Part shown: positions 2,467 through 47,886 of the stretch, in pieces
Layout: each line of letters starts with the position of its first letter
Position numbering within the stretch: the stretch's first letter is position 1
DNA from: Heliocybe sulcata
Lineage: Eukaryota; Basidiomycota; Agaricomycetes; Gloeophyllales; Gloeophyllaceae
Direction of reading: 5' to 3'
DNA length: 64,000 nucleotides
Assembly: GCA_004369045.1 (NCBI GenBank)
Contig: ML213525.1
Coordinates: 313,789 to 377,788 of the forward strand
Translations under genes and position numbers: made by a program
The notes under the pieces: generated by a model
The model's database searches: none
Told to the model about the DNA's origin: nothing
What the model saw: only the letters and a program-made list of their open reading frames with translations

Positions 2467-3663
2467 CTAGTAGCTGACCTCGTCCGGTGTCAGACCCATC
2501 AACTGATCCGTAAGCTAAGCAAGCGCCAGTCAGGAATGTAAAGATTTGTACATGGAGCATGATGCGCTCACCATATGTGCGAAATATATGCACCAGCAAA
2601 GTTGCATTTCTTGCTTCAGGGCAAGCAGGTCGACGTCCTCGTGAGGCCAGGTGCTTGCCTTATCAAAATCAATTATGACCACAGTGCCGTCGCGGCGGAC
2701 GAGAGTATTGCGCGGGAGAAGGTCATTATGCAATACTCCTGCTTCGTGCAGGTGCTCAGCAGCCAATAGCGCTTGTTCCGCGATAGGCACCGAGATATTC
2801 AGCACCGAGAGCGTCTCAGCGTCGGCAACGTCTTCAATGAGGAGAGCGTACGGCGGCTTCTCGTCGGATGCGAAAGAGCGCAACCACTGGGAGCGCTTGG
2901 GTACACGGAGCTCGAACCAGCCATAACACATTGGTACGAATCCCTGCGCACAGACGCCGTGGTGCAGTAGACGCTCGTATGCCCGCTTCTCTCTTGCAAA
3001 CTTGTGAGGACCACACTCAGCGACGCAGTCAGGGATGACGGTGGAATGGAACTAGTAGAGCCAGAGTCAGTAGCAGTATACAGATGACATGCCACCGGGA
3101 CGTACGAGTTTGAGTATATAGCCTTTGCCCTTATACCTGACTCGAAATATGGAGCTGTAGTCCACACCTTCCTCGTTCTCATCGCGCACCACTTCGACGC
3201 AACTCAACTCACGATAACGAATGTTCAGTCGCTTGAGCGGTCCTACAGGATCCATTGGCGGCAACGCATGTATCTTGGGATCCGGAAACTTATGTCCCTT
3301 CCACATCTCTTTGAAAGGATTCCTGCCCCAGATTGGCACGGCGTGCAGAGGATTGCGTGCAGTCGTACGGTACTCCTCCCGCGCTTTGGCAATGAAAGCA
3401 GGATCGGTATATTGGGGATCGGGCTTGGAACGAACTGTATACGCGCCAGCATTCATTCGTCTCCGTTTGGGAGAGCGGCCTGTATCCTCTGTAGCTGAGG
3501 CATCAAGATTCGCAGCCTGGACCTTTCTCTTGGGGCGGCCGGCAGAAGACGCCCTCGCAGATTTGGAAGGAAAAGTGGACTTTGAGGGAGGAATGGACAG
3601 CTTATTCACTGCCGTAGATAGAGCAAGAATGCGAGCAGATCTTCGTGTAGGTTGGGCGGTCAT
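2467..3663 (-). CDS. Kinase-like protein, cassette unit 1 (paralog A)
   Basis: Three exons encode about 360 residues. The N-terminus carries a basic motif (TRRSARILALS) and an RPKRK/KRRR-rich, probably nuclear-targeting segment. A conserved block follows (PDPQYTDP, PIWGRNPF, DPKIHALPPMDP), then a protein-kinase-like fold. Visible kinase features are the beta-3 lysine in YILKL (about residue 185), a glutamate in REKRAYERL, a catalytic loop HNDLLPRN (H294, D296, N301) and IIDFD (D314) in place of DFG. The other paralogs have HRD, so HND is a private change here. The start is ATG 3663, matching all paralogs. The first intron begins at GTACGT (donor at 3105). The last exon encodes LTDQLMGLTPDEVSY and the stop. 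The essential residues are retained, so it may be active. The substrate is unknown. It resembles fungus-specific kinase families such as FunK1 (IDFD motif) but is not assigned. Confidence 0.85.
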
Positions 3664-3967
3664 TGCAGATGGTCGGTGCTGGTGGCGGTGAATAGGAATG
3701 CTGAGTCGATCAGATACAACAACATAGAATCTGAACTCCGCTATCACGTGATTTTCACGTACACGCCCCTTCTGCGTGGCCGCAGCCACAAATCGAAGGT
3801 CGCAGAGTCCGGCGGGGTCTAAATATCCTGGGAGTTGGCTTTGCCGCCTCCCCAGCAGCACGTCCCAGCGTGCCACCTGGTAAGTGCTCTCGTTCTGCTA
3901 CCTCGAGTAAGTTATTATTATGATATTCTGCGCTACAACTGATAACATTTTGTGGTTCTCTATAAGG
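3664..3967. promoter_or_regulatory. Divergent promoter of cassette unit 1 with ATCACGTGAT
   Basis: The 304 bp between the two start codons hold the perfect 10-bp palindrome ATCACGTGAT at 3743-3752. The same 10-mer is present in the equivalent promoters of units 2 and 3. CACGTG is the E-box core bound by bHLH factors such as Cbf1/Pho4-type proteins. A GGTAAG site near 3880 and the AG before ATG 3968 suggest a 5'UTR intron in the nuclease-like transcript, also alignable in units 2 and 3. Confidence 0.6.
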
Positions 3968-5545
3968 ATGCCGCACACGTCAATTAGGACGTCTGTTTTC
4001 GGTTATCTGATCAAGACAGAAGTAGCCAAATTGACCCCAAACAACTGGAAGAAAGGTCTGAATACACGTAGTGATGCTTTCAGTGCCAAAGACATTCGAC
4101 ATGTCGAGCACTGGGACCTCGCCCTCAAGGACATCACAACGGCTCCGTTCGCTCATTGTCTGGAAAGAGAGATCGAGTCGGAGCATACAACTGACTCCAA
4201 GCCTTACGTCAATGACGAAGCCACCACGGCGCAAAGACTAGAGATGGTGTTTTGGCCGCACATCCGACGCACTCTGAGGGCTGGCTGCGATCCCGAAGTC
4301 CCGGAAGGCCATGTCAGAATTTATTGTGACATAGGATCTGCCGCTAAATCCCACCCACAGGCCAAGCCAGACAGGGCAGCACGCGTTTCCGAAGACGTTC
4401 CGCTGCCATACCGCGACAACAGGCTTCCTGGGGAGCTCAAGGTCTCGTGGAAATGGTCCTCTGATATGGTAGAGGTGGCTCCGGACGACGAGGGAGAGGA
4501 GTACGAATACCGTCAAGTTTTGTCGCAGCTCCTCTTCTACATGAAGGTCCACCAGTGTCGCTGGGGCTACATCATAACAGACAGGGAAGTCGTGTGCGCC
4601 CGCCGCCAACCGCTGCAGGACAACGTGATAGAGCTATCAGATGCTATCCCACTCACGCGCTGCCAGGATCCTCTGCAGAACTGGAGTCTAGGGCCTAAAG
4701 TGTGAGTATAGCTTGTGCTTTACAGTGGCTGCCACCAATGACATGTTCTTACCGCATGCTAGTGACAATGGCTATCCACATGCTGAAGGAGAGCTGACAG
4801 CTTTGTTGGCGATCTGTACATGCACATGTTGGCATCCATGGAGAATTCGCCAGAGGGATGGTTCCTGGCTTGGGAACGGAGGTCCCCGGCTAAGCCTTGT
4901 ATACCTGTGGAACTCGCTGAGGAGGATGCGGACCACGACGGGGATGTGACCGTGGCTGACGCTGATGCGAATCCTGGAAAGGTGAAAACCGGGACGGCGT
5001 TTGAGTCTGCCAGGCAGAAGGATTTGGAGAAGAAGCCCTCTATCGTCGTCCGCCGATCAGCACGGATCAAGGCTGCAAGCAAATCCATCGTTCTCGCTAA
5101 CGCAGTGCAGCCGCAAGCTGAAAGTGAGACTGCGGTGGTCTCCAAGGGCGAGCAAGCCAACTCGAAGGTTTCTGGCTCTGGAGAGCAGGACAGAAACGTA
5201 GACACGGAGGAAGACGAAGAGGAGGCAGAGTTAACCACTGAACCGAAGGAGGAGCCTTCTATCGCGCTTCGGCGATCAGCGCAGGTCAAGCCTGCAAAAG
5301 ATGGCCTGACCTTGGAAGTAAAGAGTAAGACATCAGTGGTGAATAAGGGTAAGCAGGCCAAAGTCGAGTTCTCGGGGGCTCCTGGCTCCAGCAAGCAGGA
5401 GACTTCGAAGAAGGCTAGCAGAAACAACCGCAAAAAGGCGACTGACGCAGCTGTCCCGGAAATTGGTGATAAGAAGCAGGCTGCATCGACCGGTCGTACC
5501 CTGGGCAAAGGAAAGCAGCTCGAGAAGAGTGGCGCTACTGAATGA
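3968..5545 (+). CDS. PD-(D/E)XK nuclease-like protein, cassette unit 1
   Basis: Exon 1 (3968 to about 4702) encodes 245 residues. They include PD at 134-135 followed 21 residues later by E156-L-K158, and then YRQVLSQLLFYM with Q183 and Q187. This reproduces the PD-Xn-(D/E)XK plus Q-helix signature of the restriction-endonuclease-like fold. The sequence KVHQCRWGYIITDREVV follows. The start ATG 3968 is chosen because the frame then aligns with the unit 3 paralog. Exon 2 encodes a long charged, low-complexity tail with VVRRSARIKAASKS and ALRRSAQVKPA, echoing the RRSARI motif at the kinase N-terminus. The exon-2 acceptor is uncertain: next to unit 3 this copy lacks one base near 4812, and an acceptor about 20 nt further in (after 4787) would keep the frame. 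Function is inferred from motifs only. It may be an enzyme or a non-catalytic DNA-binding derivative. Confidence 0.7.
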
Positions 5546-5693
5546 GTAAGTGGCACGACGTAGCTCTGCGTGCAACAGAAAGGTAAAACATGTTCAGTCA
5601 ACCCTGCTTTAGTTTTCTCATGCCTCGCACCGTACACCAACATGTACTTGCTTCTCATGCTCGTTGAATAACGATGCGTGGATATTCCAACCG

Positions 5694-6882
5694 CTAGTAG
5701 CCAACTTGTTCCGGCGTGAGACCCAGCAACTTGTCTGAAAGCTGAGCAGACGTCAACGGGGGCTATGGCAACGACGTAGCGGAAAAGACCTCACCAGACA
5801 CGCATAATACAAATCCCAACATAGTTCCTTCTCAACCTTCAGCGAGAGACGGTGGACGCCCTTATGTGGCCAAGTGCTTGCCCTGTCGAAGTCGATGATA
5901 ACGACTGTATTATCGGGACGGACCAGCGTATTGCGGGGATACAGATCACGATGCAGGACACCGGCATTGTGCACATTCTCGGCGGCCAACATCGCCTGTT
6001 CAGCCACAGGGATGGAAATGTTCGATACATCGAGAGGAACTCCATCGGCGATATCCTCGAGCAACAGCGCGTAGGGCGGCTTTTCGTCGGAGGCAAAGGC
6101 ACGCAGCCACCCAGGTTTCTTGGGAACGACGAGCTCGAACCAGCCATGGCACATGGGGACAAAGCCTTGCGAGCAAACGCCATGGTGTAGCAAACGTTCA
6201 TAAGCGTGCTTCTCCCTCGCAAATTTCGACTGCACCCATTTCGGCGGTGCGGTAGAGCGAAACTAGGAGGAAAAAATCCATTGCTGTACACGAAGGCAGT
6301 GGCATGGGAACGTACCAGTTTTAGAATTACACCTTCGCCTTTATATCTGACTCTGTATACGGAGGAAGCATATGCATCCTCCTTAGCACAACCGCCGATG
6401 ACTTCTACACAGGTCAACTCGCTATACTGCACACGAAGCCGCTTCAACGACGGCGCAGAGCTCATGGTCGGCAGCGTGTGTATCTCCGGATCTGGGCCGT
6501 CCAAACCTTTCCATATCGCACTATAAGGATTCGCGCCGTAAACAGGCAGTTCATGGAATGGATTGCATGAGGTTTTGAGGAAGCGCTTTCGCGCCTTCCC
6601 TATGGAGGTAGGGTTCGCGTATTTGGGATCCGGATCGCGGCGGACGGTGTATGCAGTCACCGTAAGCCGCCTCTTCTTGGGTAGGCGTCTCTGGTCTTGC
6701 TGCACAACAGCGTCAGTGCTCGTAGCCGGAGCCTTCCTCTTTGAGCGGCCGGTCGAGGACGACTGTGCAGGTTTGGATATATGCGCTGCTGAACGAAGGG
6801 GAGGATAAATGGATTTGTTCCCGGAAGTGGACTGCGCGAGAATGCGAGCGGATCGCCTTAGAGTGAGAGGCTCAGTAGTCAT
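5694..6882 (-). CDS. Kinase-like protein, cassette unit 2 (paralog B)
   Basis: Three exons with the same splice positions as paralog A encode about 360 residues. It starts MTTEPLTLRRSARILAQS and continues through a KRK-rich segment, PDPKYANP, PVYGANPYSAIW and DPEIHTLPTM. Kinase features are GEGVILKLV (beta-3 Lys), EKHAYERLL, a canonical HRDLYPRN catalytic loop, and VVIIDFDRAS with an IDFD motif. The final exon reads LSDKLLGLTPEQVGY then stop. By eye it is roughly nine-tenths identical to paralog C and clearly less similar to paralog A, so B and C are the most recent duplicates. All catalytic positions are kept even though the divergent partner gene is dead. That suggests the kinase can be retained on its own, or that the loss is recent. 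Confidence 0.87.
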
Positions 6883-7236
6883 TGCAGCGATGGTACAGGA
6901 TGGTAGCAACCCAGGTGAAATAGAGAAGTTAGGATCGCCACTAACATCCTTTGTGCGATCAGACTACGCGATCACGTGATGAATGCAACCACACAGCCAG
7001 ATCTAGAACTGCGTGGCCCAGCGGAATCTGAACACACTCTTGACGAGCCATGATGCATGATGCATGAACGCCAATCTCGCATCTGCTGCCTTCTACACAC
7101 TTCGTCGCATAACTCCCAAGACCCTTACATATAACGCACCATATTTGTAGCGACTAGTAAGCTGCCAGGCCAGGCTCCGATATCCAGCTAATGTCCATGA
7201 TATCTTGCCTTATAGACTTGAGCCATCACGGCCACA
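6883..7236. promoter_or_regulatory. Divergent promoter of cassette unit 2 with ATCACGTGAT
   Basis: The perfect palindrome ATCACGTGAT lies at 6971-6980, at nearly the same distance from the kinase ATG as in units 1 and 3. Downstream, the block CTGCGTGGCCCAGCGGA is shared with unit 3, as is the CGCCAATCTCGCAT block. An imperfect direct repeat of TGATGCATGATGCATGA is present near 7050. Confidence 0.55.
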
Positions 7237-8098
7237 ATGGAACTATTTGCCTACCTCATGAACACGCAGATCTTCAAGTTCATTTCTGGGGAATCTTAAG
7301 ACAGCACCAATACCCGCAGCAGCTCGGGCTCGTGGGGTGCAAACAAAATTGAGATACCTCACGTCGGTCGTCGGCCACTGGGATCTGACAGCTGAGTTCG
7401 ATGCAAGAGTACGCCGGGATAATTTGCGACATCGGTTAAATTGTTAGATTCATCCCAGGAACTAAGCCTGACAGGGCAGCACGAGTCTCCAACTTGGCCC
7501 TGATCTAGGACCGTCCCAATAGACTGCCAGGGGGTATCAAACTCTCGTGTAACTGGTACGCAGGCATGGTCAAGGAGAAGCCTCATGATCTCGAGGCTCA
7601 GAAGGAGCATCTCCTCTACTACATGAGGCTACGTGGATGTCACTGGGGGTACATCATATCTGACAAGGAGGTCGTGTGCGCTCGCCGTCCAGCTTCGGGA
7701 GGCATCGTGATCGAGTTGTCTGACCCTATTCCGTTGACGTGCTATCGATAACCGACAGATGACTGGCAACTCGGACCGCAGATGTAAGCACCATCCGCAT
7801 TCCGTTCTGTCTGATGACGCATATTCTCCATGTAGAAACCGTCGCCGAGGAAGAGGAAGAGGTGGAGGCAGTGTTGGCCACTGAGTTGAAGGACCCTTCT
7901 ATCACCTTTCGTCGATTCTATCACCTTTCGTCGATCAGCGAGGGTTAAGTCCGCGAAAAACGGCGTGATTCTTGGAAGCCAAGTAAGAACAGCAACAGTG
8001 AGTATGGGCAAGCAGGCGAAAGCTAAGTCGTCGGAATCTGCTGTGAAGAAGGCTAGCAGAAAGCGAAGCAGCTCGAGAAGATTGCCACCACTGGATGA
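7237..8098 (+). pseudogene. Relic of the PD-(D/E)XK nuclease-like gene, cassette unit 2
   Basis: The sequence aligns with the unit 3 nuclease-like gene from its start (FAYLMNTQIFKFISG) through TKPDRAA-like DNA to HWGYIISDKEVVCARRPASG and ELSDPIPLT. It carries several stops and frame breaks and is shortened in the middle. Its 3' part (EEEEEVEAVLATELKDPSI, then KKASRK-like DNA) resembles the unit 1 tail rather than the unit 3 tail. It cannot make a full protein as it stands. One fragment of about 60 codons (7566-7751) is still open. Confidence 0.8.
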
Positions 8099-8210
8099 AT
8101 AGGTGGCACGGCGTAGGTCTGCGTGCAGCAGAAAGGTAGAACAAGTTTAGCCCAAACCTGGTTTTCTTTCTTGTATCTCGTACTGTGCGCCAAGATATAC
8201 TTGTAGGACC

Positions 8211-8582
8211 CCCTGCTTATCATGGTCACGGGAGGGCCGGAATGTATCAGTACTTTGGTCCGATTCTCCGGCATCGTTTCGCAAGGAGTTAAGGGATGCA
8301 GGACTTCCTAAGCTAAGACCGGGGCCACGGGCACCGCCCTTTGGCGCGGCGCCTTGTGACCTTAGACAATATTTCTTGAAATATGTTGAGCTCTTCGCTG
8401 ATGTACAGTACGGAGGGAGCAGAGCTCAAGCGCATCTCGAGCACAAGCTACGAACGGTGATAGAGGATCAGATGCAATGAGCATCGGCAGAAACGATGAA
8501 GGAACCATGTCCCGATCTCTGAAAATATAACACTGCAGGCAGACAGGTATCTAAGGCTACAGCAATGGGCGGTACAACTGCT
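8211..8582. other. Spacer between cassette units 2 and 3
   Basis: About 370 bp without a gene. It includes a GC-rich patch (GGGGCCACGGGCACCGCCC and GGCGCGGCGCC near 8320-8355). I see no equivalent stretch between units 1 and 2, so this is either an insertion or part of an ancestral flank lost elsewhere. Confidence 0.4.
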
Positions 8583-9769
8583 CTAGTAGCCAACTTGATC
8601 TGGCGTTAGACCCAGCAGCTTGTCTGAAAGCTGAGCAGATGTCAATCGCGGCTACAGCAAACATAGCGGGAGAGACGTTACCAGGCGTGTGTAGTACAAA
8701 TTCCAACAGAGTTCCTTCTCTTCATTCAGTGAGAGACGTTCGACGTCCTTGTGCGGCCAAGTGCTTGCCCAGTCGAAGTCGATGATGACGACGGTATTAT
8801 CGGGACGGACCAGCGTATTACGGGGATACAGATCACGATGCAGGACACCGGCATCGTGCATGTTCTCGACGGCTAACATTGCTTGTTCAGCCACAGGAAT
8901 GGAGATATTCGATACGTCAAGGGGAACTCCATCGGAGATATCCTCAAGCAATAGGCCGTAAGGTGGGTTTTCGTCAAAGGCAAAGGCTCGAAGCCACCCA
9001 GGTGTCTTGGGAACGACGAGCTCGAACCAGCCATGGCACATGGGGACAAAGCCTTGCGAGCAAACGCCATGGTGTAGCAGACGCTCATAAGCACGCTTCT
9101 CCCTCTTGAATTTCGACTGCACCCATTTCGGCGGCGGGGTAGAGCGAAACTGGGGAGAAAAGGTCTATTGCTATAGGCGAAGGTAGGGGCACGAAAACGC
9201 ACCAGTTTTAGAATGAAACCTTCACCCTTATACCTGACTCTGCATACGAAGGTAGCATATACATCCTCCTTATCACAACCGCGAATGCGTTCAACGCAGG
9301 TCAACTCGCTATACCGCACTCGTAGCTGCTTTAACGACGGCGCAGAGCTCATGGTCGGCAGCGTGTGTATCTCCGGACCTTGGCCGTCAAAGTCTTTCCA
9401 TATCGCGCTATAAGGGTTCATGCCGTAAACAGGCAGTTTATGAAATGGATTGGATGAGGTTTTGAGGAAGCGCTTTCGCGCCTTCCCGATGGAGGTAGGA
9501 TTCGCGTATTTGGGATCTGGATCGCAGCGGACGGTGTATGCAGTCGCTGCGAGCCGCCTCTTCTTGGGTAGGCGTCGCTGGTCTTCCTGCCCAACAGCGT
9601 CAGTGCCCGTAGCTGGAGCCTTCCTCTTTGAGCGGCCGGTCGAGGACGACTGTGCAGGTTTGGATCTATGCGCTGCTGGACGAAAGGAGGGAGAGGCAGA
9701 TTTGTTCCCTGAAGTACACTGCGCGAGAATGCGAGCGGATCGCCTTAAAGTGAAGGGCTCAGTAGTCAT
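8583..9769 (-). CDS. Kinase-like protein, cassette unit 3 (paralog C)
   Basis: The three-exon gene is nearly identical in layout to paralog B and encodes about 360 residues. It begins MTTEPFTLRRSARILAQC, followed by a KRK-rich linker, PDPKYANP, PVYGMNPYSAIW and GPEIHTLPTM. Kinase motifs are GEGFILKLV, REKRAYERLL, HRDLYPRN and VVIIDFDWAS. The last exon ends LTPDQVGY-like then stop at 8583-8585. The start ATG 9769 follows the same context as paralog B. The first intron starts at a donor following the ILKL codons, as in the other copies. It is divergently paired with the intact nuclease-like gene at 10092 across a 322-bp promoter, which is the basis for suggesting joint function. Confidence 0.87.
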
Positions 9770-10091
9770 TGTAGCGGTGGTACGGGATGGTGGCAGGATA
9801 GGGGAAATGCGCGAGAACTGAGTACGATAAGATTTCGGACTCCGCAATCACGTGATAATTTCAACCACCCTGACCCTGCAGGCTGCGTGGCCCAGCGGAG
9901 TCTGAACGTAACATTCGCGCATGAACGCCAATCTCGCATTCTCGTGCCTTCACCCTACTTCATCGCATACCTCCCAATACTCATATCTAGAGCACTATAC
10001 TTGTAGCAACTGGTAAGCTGCTAGTCGTGCCTCCCATACGTAATTGAATCTGGATGTTCACTGACATCTTGCCTTGGAGGATTGGGACATT
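9770..10091. promoter_or_regulatory. Divergent promoter of cassette unit 3 with ATCACGTGAT
   Basis: The perfect 10-bp palindrome ATCACGTGAT is at 9847-9856. The CTGCGTGGCCCAGCGGA block follows near 9890. A CTGGTAAGCTGC donor-like site near 10010 and the AG just before the coding start suggest a 5'UTR intron in the nuclease-like transcript, aligned with units 1 and 2. Confidence 0.6.
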
Positions 10092-11502
10092 ATGGCCACG
10101 ATGGAAATATTTGCCTACCTCATGAACACACAAATCTTCAAGTTCATTTCTAGAGAAACTCGGGAGGGCACTAATACTCGCAGCAGCTCGGGCGCGTGGG
10201 GTGCCAACAAAATTCGCATAGACAACATCGGCCACTGGGATCTGACCATCCAGGAGATAACGACAGCGTCGTTCGCGTATCTTCTGAAAAGACAGGTTGA
10301 GCCCAAGCAGTTGACAAACTCGAAGCAGTATGTTTACGACGAGCGCTCCACGGAAGCGAGGTTGGAGAGTGTCTTCTGGCTGCATGTCAGACGCGCGCTC
10401 AATGCCGGGTTCAGTGCAAGAGTGCCTCGCGGACACGTCAGGATAATTTGCGACGTCGGTTCAACCGCTAGATTTATCCAAGGAACCAAGCCTGACAGGG
10501 CAGCACGAGTCTCCGACGCGGTCCCGATCCAGGACCGTCCCAATAGACTGCCAGGGGATATCAAAGTCTCGTGGAAGTGGTATGCAGACATGGTCAAGGA
10601 GAATCCTGATGAACCCACGGTCCGGAAGGAGTATTTCCAAGTTGTCTCCCAGCTCCTCTACTACATGAAGGTACATGAATGTCGCTGGGGGTACATCATA
10701 TCTGACAAGGAGGTCGTGTGCGCACGCCGCCCAGCGTCGGGAGAGATCGAGATCGAGCTGTCGGATTCCATCCCGTTGACGCGCTATCGAAAGCCGACAG
10801 ACGACTGGGACCTCGGACCGCAAATGTGAGCGCCATTTGCATCCCATTCTGTCTGATGACACTTATGTTTCATGTAGAAACCGACGCTATCCTGAAGCCC
10901 GTGGAGAGGTGACAGCTTTGTTAGCCATGTGGTACATGCACATGTTGGCGTCTAAGGAGAACTCATCGGACGGATGGTACTTGCCTTGTGAGACCCAGTC
11001 TGCAAGTGCCATGACGCTGTCGAGTGCGCCGACGACCGGTAGCGAGTACCGGGAACACGAGAAGACCAAGAAAGCGGACAAGGGTAAGTCCAATGTACCT
11101 TCCCAGACAGACAATGGGGGGCCAAGCACGAGGACTCGAGGGGCTCTGGAAAGGGCTAAGACGCCAACGTTGGAAGGAAGTGAGCCGGAGCAAATCGCTT
11201 CTGCGCAGGCATGCAAGGGCAAGTCGAAGAAACCTTCCCAGACAGCTACTGCGGGACCGCGAATGCGAACTCGGTCCGCTGTGAGGAAGGCCACTGCTGC
11301 AACATCGCAGGCAAAGGAGCCTAAGCGGGCCGTGGCCACTCGGACGAGCAAGGGTAAGTCGAGTAAGCCTTCCCAGATAGCTACTGCAAGACCGAGCACG
11401 CGAACTCGCGGCGCTGCGAAAGAGGCTGCCGCCGCTACGTCCGATGCAAAGGAACCAGAGCCGACTGTCCCTGCGAAGCGCAAGCGGAAGGCGAGGACTT
11501 AG
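10092..11502 (+). CDS. PD-(D/E)XK nuclease-like protein, cassette unit 3
   Basis: Two exons encode about 450 residues. Exon 1 (10092 to about 10825) contains PD at 134-135, then D156-I-K158, then YFQVVSQLLYYM with Q183 and Q187. The unit 1 copy has E-L-K at exactly the same positions, so the acidic residue varies between D and E as expected for a PD-(D/E)XK site. The sequence KVHECRWGYIISDKEVVCARR follows. Exon 2 starts after TGTAG with NRRYPEARGEVTALLAMWYMHM and then encodes three imperfect repeats of about 45 residues built on KGKS..PSQ.AT..P..RTR. The protein ends in a basic cluster (AKRKRKART) that looks like a nuclear localisation signal. I infer a nuclear, nucleic-acid-binding protein. 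Catalysis is unproven. Confidence 0.75.
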
Positions 11503-34703: not shown

Positions 34704-35899
34704 ATGGCATCTCAACCAATAAGACGATCTGCTCGCATTCTCGCTCTGTCTACGGCAGCAAACAAACAAGCAGGCCCTTCGTCGCGGCCGACAGGCTCAT
34801 CTAAACCTTCCACATCGACTTCGACTCGGCGCCTCAAGAGGAAGGCTCCGCCGGCCGAGCCTAGCACTTCAGCTGGGAAGGATCTATCCCATGCGTCGAA
34901 AAGGAGACGCATAGACGCTAGTGCATACATTGTTCGTTCCGAACCCGACCCTCAGTATCTGGATCCTGTTCCCGTCGCCCAGGCGCGGGAGTACTACCTC
35001 ACCAGCGTATCGAATCCTCTACAATGCCTACCAATCTGGGGTGAGAATCCGTACAGAGAGATATGGAAGGAGTATAGGGTCCCCGATCCAAAGATACACA
35101 CCTTGCCTCCGATGGAGCCCGTGGATCCATTGAAGCAACTGGATGATGTTCGATATAAGGAGTTGACTTGCATGGAGGTTATACGTGATGGAGACGAAGA
35201 GGGTGTAGACTTTACCTCCATTTTCCGAGTCAGGTACAAAAGAAAAGGCTATATACTCAAACTTGTACGTTCCTGTGGCGCGTCTGCTATATACTGCAAC
35301 TGACTCTGTGCTCGTCAGTTCCATTCATCGACATACCCATCCCCGCTCGTTGAAAGTGGCCCGCACAAATTTGACAGGGAAAAATGTGCTTACGAGCGTC
35401 TTTTGCACCACGGCGTATGTTCGCAAGGATTTGTGCCTATGTGCCATGGCTGGTTCGAGCTACGCGTACCCAAGGGCTCTACGTGGCTGCACTCTTTCGC
35501 GTCCGACGAGAAGCCACCGAACGCGCTGTTACTTGAGGATATTTTCGACGGAGTGACACTCTCCGTCTTGAACATCTCGCCGTCTATAGCGGGGCAAGCA
35601 CTATTGGCCGCGGACCAGATGCACGAAGCAGGCGTACTGCATCGTGATCTTCAGCCGCGCAACACCCTTGTCCGTTCCGATGGCACGGTCGTTATCATCG
35701 ACTTCGACAAAGCAAGTACTTGGCCGCACAAGGGTGTCAACCTCCTTTCCCTGAAGAAGGAGATGCAGCTTTGCTGGTGCCTCTATTTCTCCTGTATGGT
35801 AAGTGCCCGTTCCTTTACTTATCTTCACTACGCTGAGCGACGTCTTCTCAGCTGACAGATCAGTTAATGGACCTCACACCGGAGCAAGTTAGATACTAG
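34704..35899 (+). CDS. Kinase-like protein, solo copy (paralog D)
   Basis: Three exons with the same intron positions as paralogs A-C, about 360 residues. It starts MASQPIRRSARILALSTAA, followed by a KRK-rich linker, PDPQYLDP, PIWGENPYREIW and DPKIHTLPPMEP. Kinase motifs are KGYILKLV, DREKCAYERLLHHGV, HRDLQPRN and VVIIDFDKAS. The final exon reads LTDQLMDLTPEQVRY then stop. By sequence it is closer to paralog A than to B or C (RRSARILALSTA, KGYILKL, STWPH..NLLSLKKEMQLCW). It is complete and probably functional, but no nuclease-like gene lies beside it. Confidence 0.87.
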
Positions 35900-36155
35900 G
35901 ACAACATGAGAACGACCGTCTTTCTATGTTGCGCTTGTATATTGATCCCCTCTAGCTATATACTATCTCTGTGGACGACCCATAAGAACCCTCTGGAGAG
36001 ACCTGTGCGGTAGGATCTTGGTATTGAATCCGGGAAGGCGACGCTCTGAACTGCACTCCAGCTGGCTCTGAGATACTAGATCCACTCATGGCGCGGAAAC
36101 GACAAACGGGCGGCTCCCATGGTACGCCGCACCTGCGTACCCGAGGCAGCCAGGG
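35900..36155. other. Convergent spacer between two kinase-like genes
   Basis: 256 bp separating the 3' ends of paralogs D and E, with no recognisable feature. It contains no remnant of a nuclease-like gene that I can detect. Confidence 0.3.
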
Positions 36156-37348
36156 CTACCAGCACCCGTAGCGGACTTGGTTCGGCGTTAATCCCATCAA
36201 TTTATCCGTCAGCTAATGTGGCGTCAACTACCGCGATGATGATCTAGCAGGAAAGGCACTTGCCATGCATTGGTAATATATCGACCAGCAGAGCTCCTTC
36301 TCTCTCTTCAGCGAGAGACGATTCACGTCCTTCTGTGGCCAAGTCCTTGACATATCAAAGTCAATTATGACCACATGGCCATCACGACGGACAAGCGTAT
36401 TGCGCGGATATAGGTCCCGGTGGTAGACCCCGGCCCCGTGCATGTATTCCACAGCCAACATCGCTTGTTCGGCTATAGGAACCCAGATATTCAGTACATC
36501 AACCTGGACGGCGTCCGGAATGTATTCAATCAGCAGAGCATACGGCGGTATCTTGTCTTCAGCATACGACCCTAGCCATCCAGCTCTTTTAGGAACGCGA
36601 AGCTTGAACCAACCATAGCACATGGGCACGAATCCGTCTGCGCAGACGCCGTGGTGGAGAAGACGCTCGTACGCTTTCCTCTCGCACAAATACTGCTGAT
36701 ATCCGCCTCTTCCTCCATCTGGAGCAGCGCAAGAGCGAAACTGGGGAATGGGTCATCAGTGGCAGAACAGAGCAGGTCGGGACAAGGACATACAAGCTTA
36801 AGGATGTGAAGTTGGTTCTTGTACCTAACTTTAAATATAGATGTATCTGGGTCTCCTCCGTCGTCCGCATCACGAATGGCTTGGACACAAGTCAGCTCAC
36901 TATAACGAACAGCCAACTCCTTCAGTGGGGCCACAGGATCCATGGGCGGCAAAGTGTGTATCTTTGGATCCGGAGTCTTGAAACCCTCCCAAATCTTGGC
37001 GTACGGGTTATTGCCCCAGATTGGAAGGCTATGACATGGGTTGAGCAGGCCGTTTTTGAGGTACTCCTCCCGTGCCTTGGCAAGAGCGGCAGGTTCCAGA
37101 TACTGGGGATCGGGCTGTGAGCGAACTGTGTATATGCTAGCGTCCATGCATATTTTCTTGCAAGGTCGTACTACCTCTTTCGAAGCCGCAATAGACTGGG
37201 TAGCGGGTGCCTTCCTCTTGCAGCGAAGGCCGGATGACTTCGCAGGTTCAGCAGGACGCGCCTTTCGCGATCGAGGAAGAGCTTGCTCATCTGCAGCAGC
37301 AGATCGTGCAAGGATGCGTTGAGACCTTCTGATGGTTTGAGCAGGCAT
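36156..37348 (-). CDS. Kinase-like protein, solo copy (paralog E)
   Basis: Three exons, about 360 residues, starting MPAQTIRRSQRILARSAAAD. The basic motif here reads RRSQRIL. Next come a KRK-rich linker, PDPQYLEP, PIWGNNPYAKIW and DPKIHTLPPMDP. Kinase motifs are NQLHILKLV, ERKAYERLLHHGV, HRDLYPRN and VVIIDFDMSRTWP. The last exon reads LTDKLMGLTPNQVRY, but the usual stop after this Tyr is absent and the frame runs three codons further (GCW) to TAG at 36156-36158. The upstream region contains ATCACGTGAC (37443-37452), nine of ten positions of the cassette palindrome. There is no nuclease-like partner on the far side. Instead a decayed rhodopsin-like gene follows. Confidence 0.85.
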
Positions 37349-37439: not shown

Positions 37440-37455
37440 ACCATCACGTGACACG
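37440..37455. promoter_or_regulatory. CACGTG element upstream of kinase-like paralog E
   Basis: ATCACGTGAC at 37443-37452 matches the cassette palindrome ATCACGTGAT except for the last base. It lies about 95 bp upstream of the paralog E start, close to the spacing in the tandem units (about 80-90 bp). Confidence 0.45.
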
Positions 37456-47682: not shown

Positions 47683-47886
47683 TGATGCCAGGGATATCCG
47701 ATGTTAGACGATGTGCACAAAGAACCGTCGGTTGTAAGTACGGGAGCTGATGGGCGCCTGTAGCCTCGGCGCCTTCCTTTGCCCCGTTATATACCCCGTA
47801 TCACGTGACGCATAAAAGTTGCGATCGGGGAAGGCTATATGCGCCTCTTGCGTCCTCGTCGGCGACCGTGACGACCGCACATCGAA
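47683..47886. promoter_or_regulatory. Bidirectional promoter of E2 (Ubc15 type) and RPC2
   Basis: This 204-bp region contains ATCACGTGAC at 47800-47809, the same E-box type as in the kinase cassettes, and a TTATATA element just before it. Its presence at an unrelated housekeeping promoter shows that the motif is not specific to the cassette. Confidence 0.5.

What the first reader, a model, noticed from the sequence alone, without database searches (positions are those of the whole stretch)
2467..11502. Tandem array of a divergent kinase-like / PD-(D/E)XK nuclease-like gene cassette
Three head-to-tail copies of a 2.9-3.2-kb unit each pair a minus-strand kinase-like gene with a plus-strand nuclease-like gene around a roughly 300-bp promoter. 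Both proteins have enzyme-like motifs and basic nuclear-type segments. The duplication includes flanks and promoter, so the pair moves as a unit. From memory, many basidiomycete FunK1 proteins carry an E-x-K..Q block ahead of an IDFD-type kinase in one polypeptide, so this pair may be a split two-gene version of that design. A kinase acting together with, or controlling, a nuclease would be a new two-component arrangement in fungi.
Basis: partly seen in the sequence, partly recalled or inferred. Interest (0 to 1): 0.82.

Follow-up and report, generated by a model that had tools for sequence, protein, structure and literature searches.

The report
Duplicated kinase and nuclease-like gene pair
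In a mushroom genome, a kinase gene and a little-known gene with nuclease-like signature residues sit head to head and have been copied several times; the kinase copies stayed intact while most nuclease-like copies broke, which hints that the kinase may restrain its neighbour, but no partnership is proven.

Summary
The array is real but less symmetrical than described. The window lies in Heliocybe sulcata (contig C23). Three divergent units K1/N1, K2/N2, K3/N3 span 2467-11502; a fourth, K0/N0, lies just upstream of the window. All four kinase genes are intact. Of the nuclease-like genes only N3 is; N1 loses frame in exon 2, N2 has stops and missing stretches, N0 is cut short. Three further kinase copies have no detectable N. 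K keeps the kinase catalytic residues and fold but is not FunK1. N matches no Pfam family; relatives at 27-36% identity keep a D...(D/E)xK...QxxxY pattern, as in PD-(D/E)XK/RecB-like nucleases. Structure prediction failed, so the fold is unproven. K and N also share a contig in Neolentinus lepideus (4 K, 4 N found), so the linkage probably predates most of the duplication. The split-FunK1 idea fails for the kinase and finds no profile support for N. REase-kinase coupling is already published, as fusions in Crinkler effectors. Best reading: an old linked kinase/nuclease-like pair, locally amplified, the kinase plausibly regulating the nuclease. An antidote role fits the one-sided decay in Heliocybe, but Neolentinus shows no such imbalance and nothing is tested.

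The parts
2467..3663 (-). K1: kinase-like gene of unit 1, 361 aa, exons 3663-3106, 3051-2572, 2514-2467; intact
   Evidence: deposited as P0006, 361 aa
3664..3967 (.). Divergent promoter of unit 1 (304 bp) with TCACGTGA at 3744-3751
3968..5545 (+). N1: nuclease-like gene of unit 1; exon 1 3968-4701 intact with D...(D/E)xK...QxxxY pattern; reading frame lost early in exon 2
   Evidence: (deposited product P0003, 306 aa)
5694..6882 (-). K2: kinase-like gene of unit 2, 360 aa, exons 6882-6316, 6262-5795, 5741-5694; intact
   Evidence: P0005, 360 aa
6883..7236 (.). Divergent promoter of unit 2 (354 bp) with TCACGTGA at 6972-6979
7237..8097 (+). N2: nuclease-like pseudogene (several in-frame stops, missing stretches); ends approximate
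8583..9769 (-). K3: kinase-like gene of unit 3, 360 aa, exons 9769-9203, 9149-8682, 8630-8583; intact
   Evidence: P0004 100% identical
9770..10091 (.). Divergent promoter of unit 3 (322 bp) with TCACGTGA at 9848-9855
10092..11502 (+). N3: the only intact nuclease-like gene, 452 aa, exons 10092-10825 and 10878-11502; D135, D156-x-K158, Q187-x-x-x-Y191; basic C-terminal tail
34704..35899 (+). K4: further kinase copy (362 aa model) without an N neighbour
   Evidence: genome search for N finds nothing here at E<=10
36166..37348 (-). K5: further kinase copy, convergent with K4, without an N neighbour; first two exons open, last exon not resolved, so the low end is approximate; TCACGTGA upstream at 37444-37451

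Best explanation
This is a locally amplified, ancestrally linked pair of genes read divergently from a short shared intergenic region. K is a minimal kinase (N-lobe, catalytic loop, DFD, short C-lobe) with a basic N-terminus. N is a protein with a PD-(D/E)XK/RecB-like residue pattern and a basic tail. Shown: the array, the intact kinases, purifying selection on the recent K2/K3 pair, decay of three of four N copies, shared contig in Neolentinus, and a TCACGTGA site upstream of five K copies. Inferred: both proteins act in the nucleus, N binds or cuts nucleic acid, and K keeps N in check by phosphorylating N or its chromatin surroundings. That would let a kinase outlive its nuclease; in this genome the one intact N lies beside an intact K.
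Against: No REase fold could be shown for N (pLDDT 33.9; no Foldseek match at E<=0.001; no Pfam match). The upstream D falls in two different columns of the alignment (Gloeophyllales members against the distant ones) and lies 14 to 26 residues before the D/E, so its equivalence is read by eye. Three further K copies have no detectable N. Neolentinus shows no K excess: 4 K and 4 N, one short model in each. No interaction, expression or activity data. The order of K and N on the Neolentinus contig was not seen. The trees show mostly separate expansions in the two genera, which close linkage alone would also give.
Confidence: 0.48

Rival explanations
1. Ordinary local tandem duplication of two unrelated neighbours: K is the gene under selection, N is a passenger that is decaying, and the pairing has no functional meaning.
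For: N is broken in 3 of 4 units; K4, K5 and the C2 copy stand alone; the TCACGTGA site also sits upstream of K5, which has no N, so it goes with K and not with the pair.
Against: The two families share a contig in Neolentinus too, 4 K and 4 N found; N1/N3 dN/dS of 0.17 in exon 1 (dS saturated) and strict motif conservation at 27-36% identity show that N has been under selection.
Confidence: 0.37
2. Split FunK1: N is the FunK1 N-terminal REase-like domain and K is the FunK1 kinase, separated into two genes.
For: FunK1 proteins of this genome have a similar order of elements, PD...(D/E)xK...QxxxY, in 12 of the 14 long N-terminal domains recovered; UniRef labels P0003 and P0014 as fungal-type protein kinase domain, origin of that label unknown.
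Against: K3: 11.9 bits against a 24.1-bit cut-off for PF17667; no FunK1 serine in 9 of 9 K. N: no Pfam hit, hhalign probability 2.4% or less, HMMER E 0.6-3.4.
Confidence: 0.05
3. Toxin-antidote (addiction) pair: N is a self-harming nuclease and K is its antidote, which would explain why K is kept in every unit and in extra copies while N is free to decay.
For: One-sided loss in Heliocybe: the only intact N lies beside an intact K, while K occurs alone at three more places.
Against: n is small (four units, one intact N, one genome fully searched); plain passenger decay gives the same picture; in Neolentinus K and N are equal in number; no toxicity or drive data; N activity unproven.
Confidence: 0.1

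Closest known systems
Crinkler-type (CR/CRN) REase-kinase effector C-termini (Zhang et al. 2016, seen only through PMC5289972 passages)
   Same: [quoted passage not shown] the kinase is proposed to regulate the REase; nuclear location reported there and inferred here
   Different: There it is one polypeptide with a CR header; here two separate divergent genes. No header or secretion signal was looked for. N was not compared with those REase families.
FunK1 (PF17667, Pkinase_fungal)
   Same: Fungal, expanded kinases; FunK1 of this genome has a D..(D/E)xK..QxxxY block upstream of the kinase (12 of 14 long domains recovered)
   Different: K fails the PF17667 cut-off and the FunK1 active-site serine; N does not align to the FunK1 block above noise
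Minimal atypical kinases (Kdo/WaaP PF06293, Bud32, RIO, APH)
   Same: K3 passes the PF06293 and APH (PF01636) cut-offs; short C-lobe; weak Bud32 model hits
   Different: Long basic N-terminal extension and a conserved C-terminal tail; only the catalytic-loop region matches those profiles
PD-(D/E)XK nucleases, RecB-like branch (QxxxY motif; name recalled, no call)
   Same: Residue pattern D..(D/E)xK..QxxxY; helices and strands around it in a plausible order, but from a low-confidence model
   Different: No profile or fold match obtained

Membership tests
FunK1 (PF17667) | Score above Pfam gathering cut-off | tested here: not met
   K3 11.9 bits against 24.1; no PF17667 hit listed for K1 or N3 at E<=5
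FunK1 (PF17667) | Serine in place of the catalytic-loop lysine (VIB position 8; criterion from a passage of PMC3203195) | tested here: not met
   0 of 9 K proteins have Ser there (Y, Y, L, R, Y, D, D, Y, Q for P0004-P0012; position mapped by me as the residue two after the HxD aspartate)
FunK1 (PF17667) | REase-like block fused upstream of the kinase, as seen in own-genome FunK1 | tested here: not met
   Block seen in 12 of 14 long own-genome FunK1 N-terminal domains; K has a different basic N-terminal region and N is a separate gene
Protein-kinase-like superfamily | Catalytic Lys, Glu, HxD, Asn, D(F)D | tested here: met
   Invariant in 9 of 9
Protein-kinase-like superfamily | Kinase fold | tested here: met
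   [not shown]
PD-(D/E)XK nuclease superfamily | D...(D/E)xK(...QxxxY) pattern conserved in distant members | tested here: met
   (D/E)xK and QxxxY in 11 of 11 rows of A6; [PA]D[RC] upstream in 10 of 10 rows covering it, but in two alignment columns with 14-26 residues spacing. P0018-P0020 are near-identical, so there are three distant lineages
PD-(D/E)XK nuclease superfamily | REase core fold | tested here: inconclusive
   Model pLDDT 33.9; Foldseek best E 1.1 with that model
PD-(D/E)XK nuclease superfamily | Significant profile match to a known family | tested here: not met
   No Pfam match for N3, P0001-P0003, P0013, P0016, P0018-P0020; two non-nuclease hits at E 0.019 and 0.12 for P0017; no NCBIfam or PADLOC match for P0001, P0003
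PD-(D/E)XK nuclease superfamily | Nuclease activity | not testable with these tools
   Needs purified protein
CR/CRN REase-kinase effectors | REase and kinase in one polypeptide | tested here: not met
   Two genes on opposite strands
CR/CRN REase-kinase effectors | CR N-terminal header or secretion signal | not tested
   No predictor was run

The most novel reading that the evidence does not exclude
A fungal two-gene nuclease/kinase addiction or self-defence module: N is a PD-(D/E)XK nuclease of a family with no Pfam entry, read divergently from a kinase that neutralises it. Selection keeps spare kinases and tolerates loss of the nuclease, and both may be sent to chromatin by a shared RRSxR[ILV] peptide (at the N-terminus of K and the C-terminus of the distant N relatives).
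Probability: 0.1. Interest if true: 0.8.

Novelty: new variant of a known kind. Interest (0 to 1): 0.4.

Why it matters
In the passages I saw, REase-kinase coupling in eukaryotes is described as fused effectors. A separate, divergently transcribed pair with one-sided decay would give a simple genetic system in a mushroom to ask whether such a kinase restrains such a nuclease. It also describes a protein family (N) without a Pfam match, with members in two Gloeophyllaceae genera and on unnamed contigs, and a named active-site hypothesis.

Tried and rejected
Split FunK1: rejected for K; for N no support. The Foldseek search with that poor model carries no weight. N against PDB sequences: only dynein light chain hits at E 0.03 or worse, taken as chance. 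Viral contigs for N: 22 pattern matches, 0 confirmed. Bidirectional-promoter idea for TCACGTGA: weakened, because the site also lies upstream of K5, which has no N, and is absent upstream of K4 and the C2 copy. Kinetochore FTA2 family (PF13095): below cut-off in K1 and K3, not followed. In the 50 rows of the VIA-align list no RIO, Bud32 or Kdo structures appear; this excludes nothing.

Literature: nine searches (terms FunK1, PF17667, crinkler, REase, Heliocybe sulcata, Neolentinus lepideus, toxin-antidote and the like). By title and abstract start, no listed paper is about this pair; four lists were capped (20 of 44, 10 of 21, 10 of 23, 8 of 191 shown), and only open-licence PMC papers are held. 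Papers: passages only of PMC5289972, PMC3203195 and PMC6131194; listings for the rest. Zhang et al. 2016 itself was not read.

Full report
Where it is. The window is C23:313789-377788 of a 31.6-Mb, 51-contig genome. C23 is 503,043 bp, the same length as the contig of the Heliocybe sulcata proteins that match K1-K3 and N1, so I take the source to be Heliocybe sulcata (Gloeophyllales).

Anatomy. K1, K2 and K3 (minus strand) are intact three-exon genes of 361, 360 and 360 aa. N3 (plus strand) is an intact two-exon gene of 452 aa. N1 has an intact first exon but loses frame in exon 2 and is deposited as a 306-aa product. N2 has several stops and missing stretches. Just upstream of the window lies unit 0: K0, intact (deposited as P0007, 362 aa), and N0, cut short and out of frame. 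A xylose-isomerase-like gene (PF01261, 30.7 bits against a 31.1 cut-off, one exon tested) separates units 0 and 1. So N is intact in 1 of 4 units and K in 4 of 4.

Copies elsewhere. A six-frame search of the genome with N3 gives nine matches: eight at C23:313.3-324.8 kb and one on C3 at E 1.3. The same search with K3 gives 32 matches; seven loci are strong (E 1e-24 or better): K0-K3, K4 and K5 (window 34.7 and 36.3 kb, convergent) and one on contig C2; weaker matches start at E 7e-8. K4, K5 and the C2 copy have no N. The match at C23:302265 reads as a decayed copy without the HxD motif. In the tree K4 groups with K0 (72% support), so K also duplicates without N.

Selection. K2/K3, the only pair with dS below 1, has dN/dS 0.24 (dS 0.30); the other K pairs have dS of 1.3 or more or saturated. 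N1/N3 exon 1 gives 0.17 with dS near 2. Identity is 87.5% for K2/K3, 82.4% for the comparable N2/N3 stretch and 69.6% for the promoter, as expected if N2 has been free of constraint.

Promoter. TCACGTGA lies about 85-102 bp before the start codon of K0, K1, K2, K3 and K5, but not within 320 bp of K4 or the C2 copy (5 of 7). The window has 5 such sites against 1.17 expected (0 of 100 shuffles reach 5); four of the five belong to K1, K2, K3 and K5, the fifth is at 47801. In the alignment of the four divergent promoters it is the longest fully conserved run (8 bases, next 4). Because K5 has it without an N, it belongs to K at least.

What N is. No Pfam, NCBIfam or PADLOC family (NCBIfam and PADLOC were given P0001 and P0003). 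A first protein search found three proteins; a profile search found 12 at E<=10: three of Heliocybe (P0003, P0014, and P0021 at E 0.11), four of Neolentinus, and five from unnamed jgi or lgn contigs at 27-36% identity, three of which are near-identical. Across 11 aligned rows the strictly kept residues include RxxG(D/E)xKVSWKW, QVxSQxxxYM and CRWGY. [PA]D[RC] precedes them in 10 of 10 rows that reach so far, but 14 to 26 residues ahead and in two different alignment columns, so that D is matched by eye. D...(D/E)xK...QxxxY is the signature I recall for PD-(D/E)XK nucleases of the RecB type; the name comes from no call. The fold is not shown.

FunK1 link. Profile comparisons with N give hhalign probabilities of 2.4% or less and HMMER E-values of 0.6-3.4. 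Homology is neither shown nor excluded.

Linkage. The four Neolentinus K and four N proteins found are on a contig of 461,899 bp (same contig inferred from equal length). N locus tags span 1242047-1242079. The gene order itself was not seen, and K and N are equal in number there, with one short model in each family, so the K excess is a Heliocybe observation. The trees suggest that most duplications happened separately in each genus (N: 80% for the split that holds the Heliocybe pair together; K: 71% for K0-K4 against the rest; K5 weakly placed), so linkage probably came first and amplification later.

A shared short peptide. RRSxR[ILV] sits near the N-terminus (residues 7-14) of K0-K5 and of P0008 and P0009, and within the last 20 residues of the five distant N relatives; it also occurs in the N1 tail (beyond the frame loss) and the N2 remnant, but not in N3 or the four Neolentinus N proteins. 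Seven of nine six-frame matches in the window lie in K or N; background in other fetched loci is 7 in 327,748 residues, or about 2.7 expected per window. It may be a nuclear or chromatin address; this is a lead only. No localisation predictor was run.

Known or new. Passages of PMC5289972 report, citing Zhang et al. 2016, that about one sixth of Crinkler-type C-termini couple a REase domain to a kinase, with the kinase thought to regulate the REase. Passages of PMC6131194 report REase domains in crinklers of the fungus Rhizophagus, and a kinase domain in one predicted pseudogene. The coupling is thus not new; a separate divergent two-gene form with one-sided decay would be a variant, if N is a nuclease. 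Nine searches of the open PMC library listed nothing on this pair by title or abstract start; four of the lists were capped.

Verdict. A real, moderately interesting array. The restraint model is the one I would test first; passenger decay of N is the sober alternative.

Noticed in passing
window 3645, 6858, 9745, 34722, 37330 (K genes); 5051, 7929 (N1, N2 tails); P0016-P0020 C-termini: Short peptide RRSxR[ILV] shared by the K N-terminus and the C-terminal parts of N1, N2 and the distant N relatives.
   Followed up: partly
window 3744, 6972, 9848, 37444; L048 upstream of K0: TCACGTGA (E-box) about 85-102 bp upstream of 5 of 7 K copies.
   Followed up: partly
window 10092-11502: Deposited Heliocybe annotation appears to split N3 into two short proteins (P0014, 207 aa; P0021, 149 aa), whereas three Neolentinus relatives (P0001, P0002, P0013) are single proteins.
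   Followed up: partly
own genome, 114 exon-level FunK1 matches (none in the window): Large FunK1 family; 12 of 14 long N-terminal domains recovered from the 30 best loci show PD..(D/E)xK..QxxxY ahead of the kinase.
   Followed up: partly
L049 3227-3690 (C23:302265): Degenerate K-like remnant about 9.5 kb upstream of K0, HxD motif lost.
   Followed up: partly
window 34704-37348: Convergent kinase pair K4/K5 without N, next to a helicase-like minus-strand gene at about 32.5-34.5 kb (read by eye, no family search).
   Followed up: no
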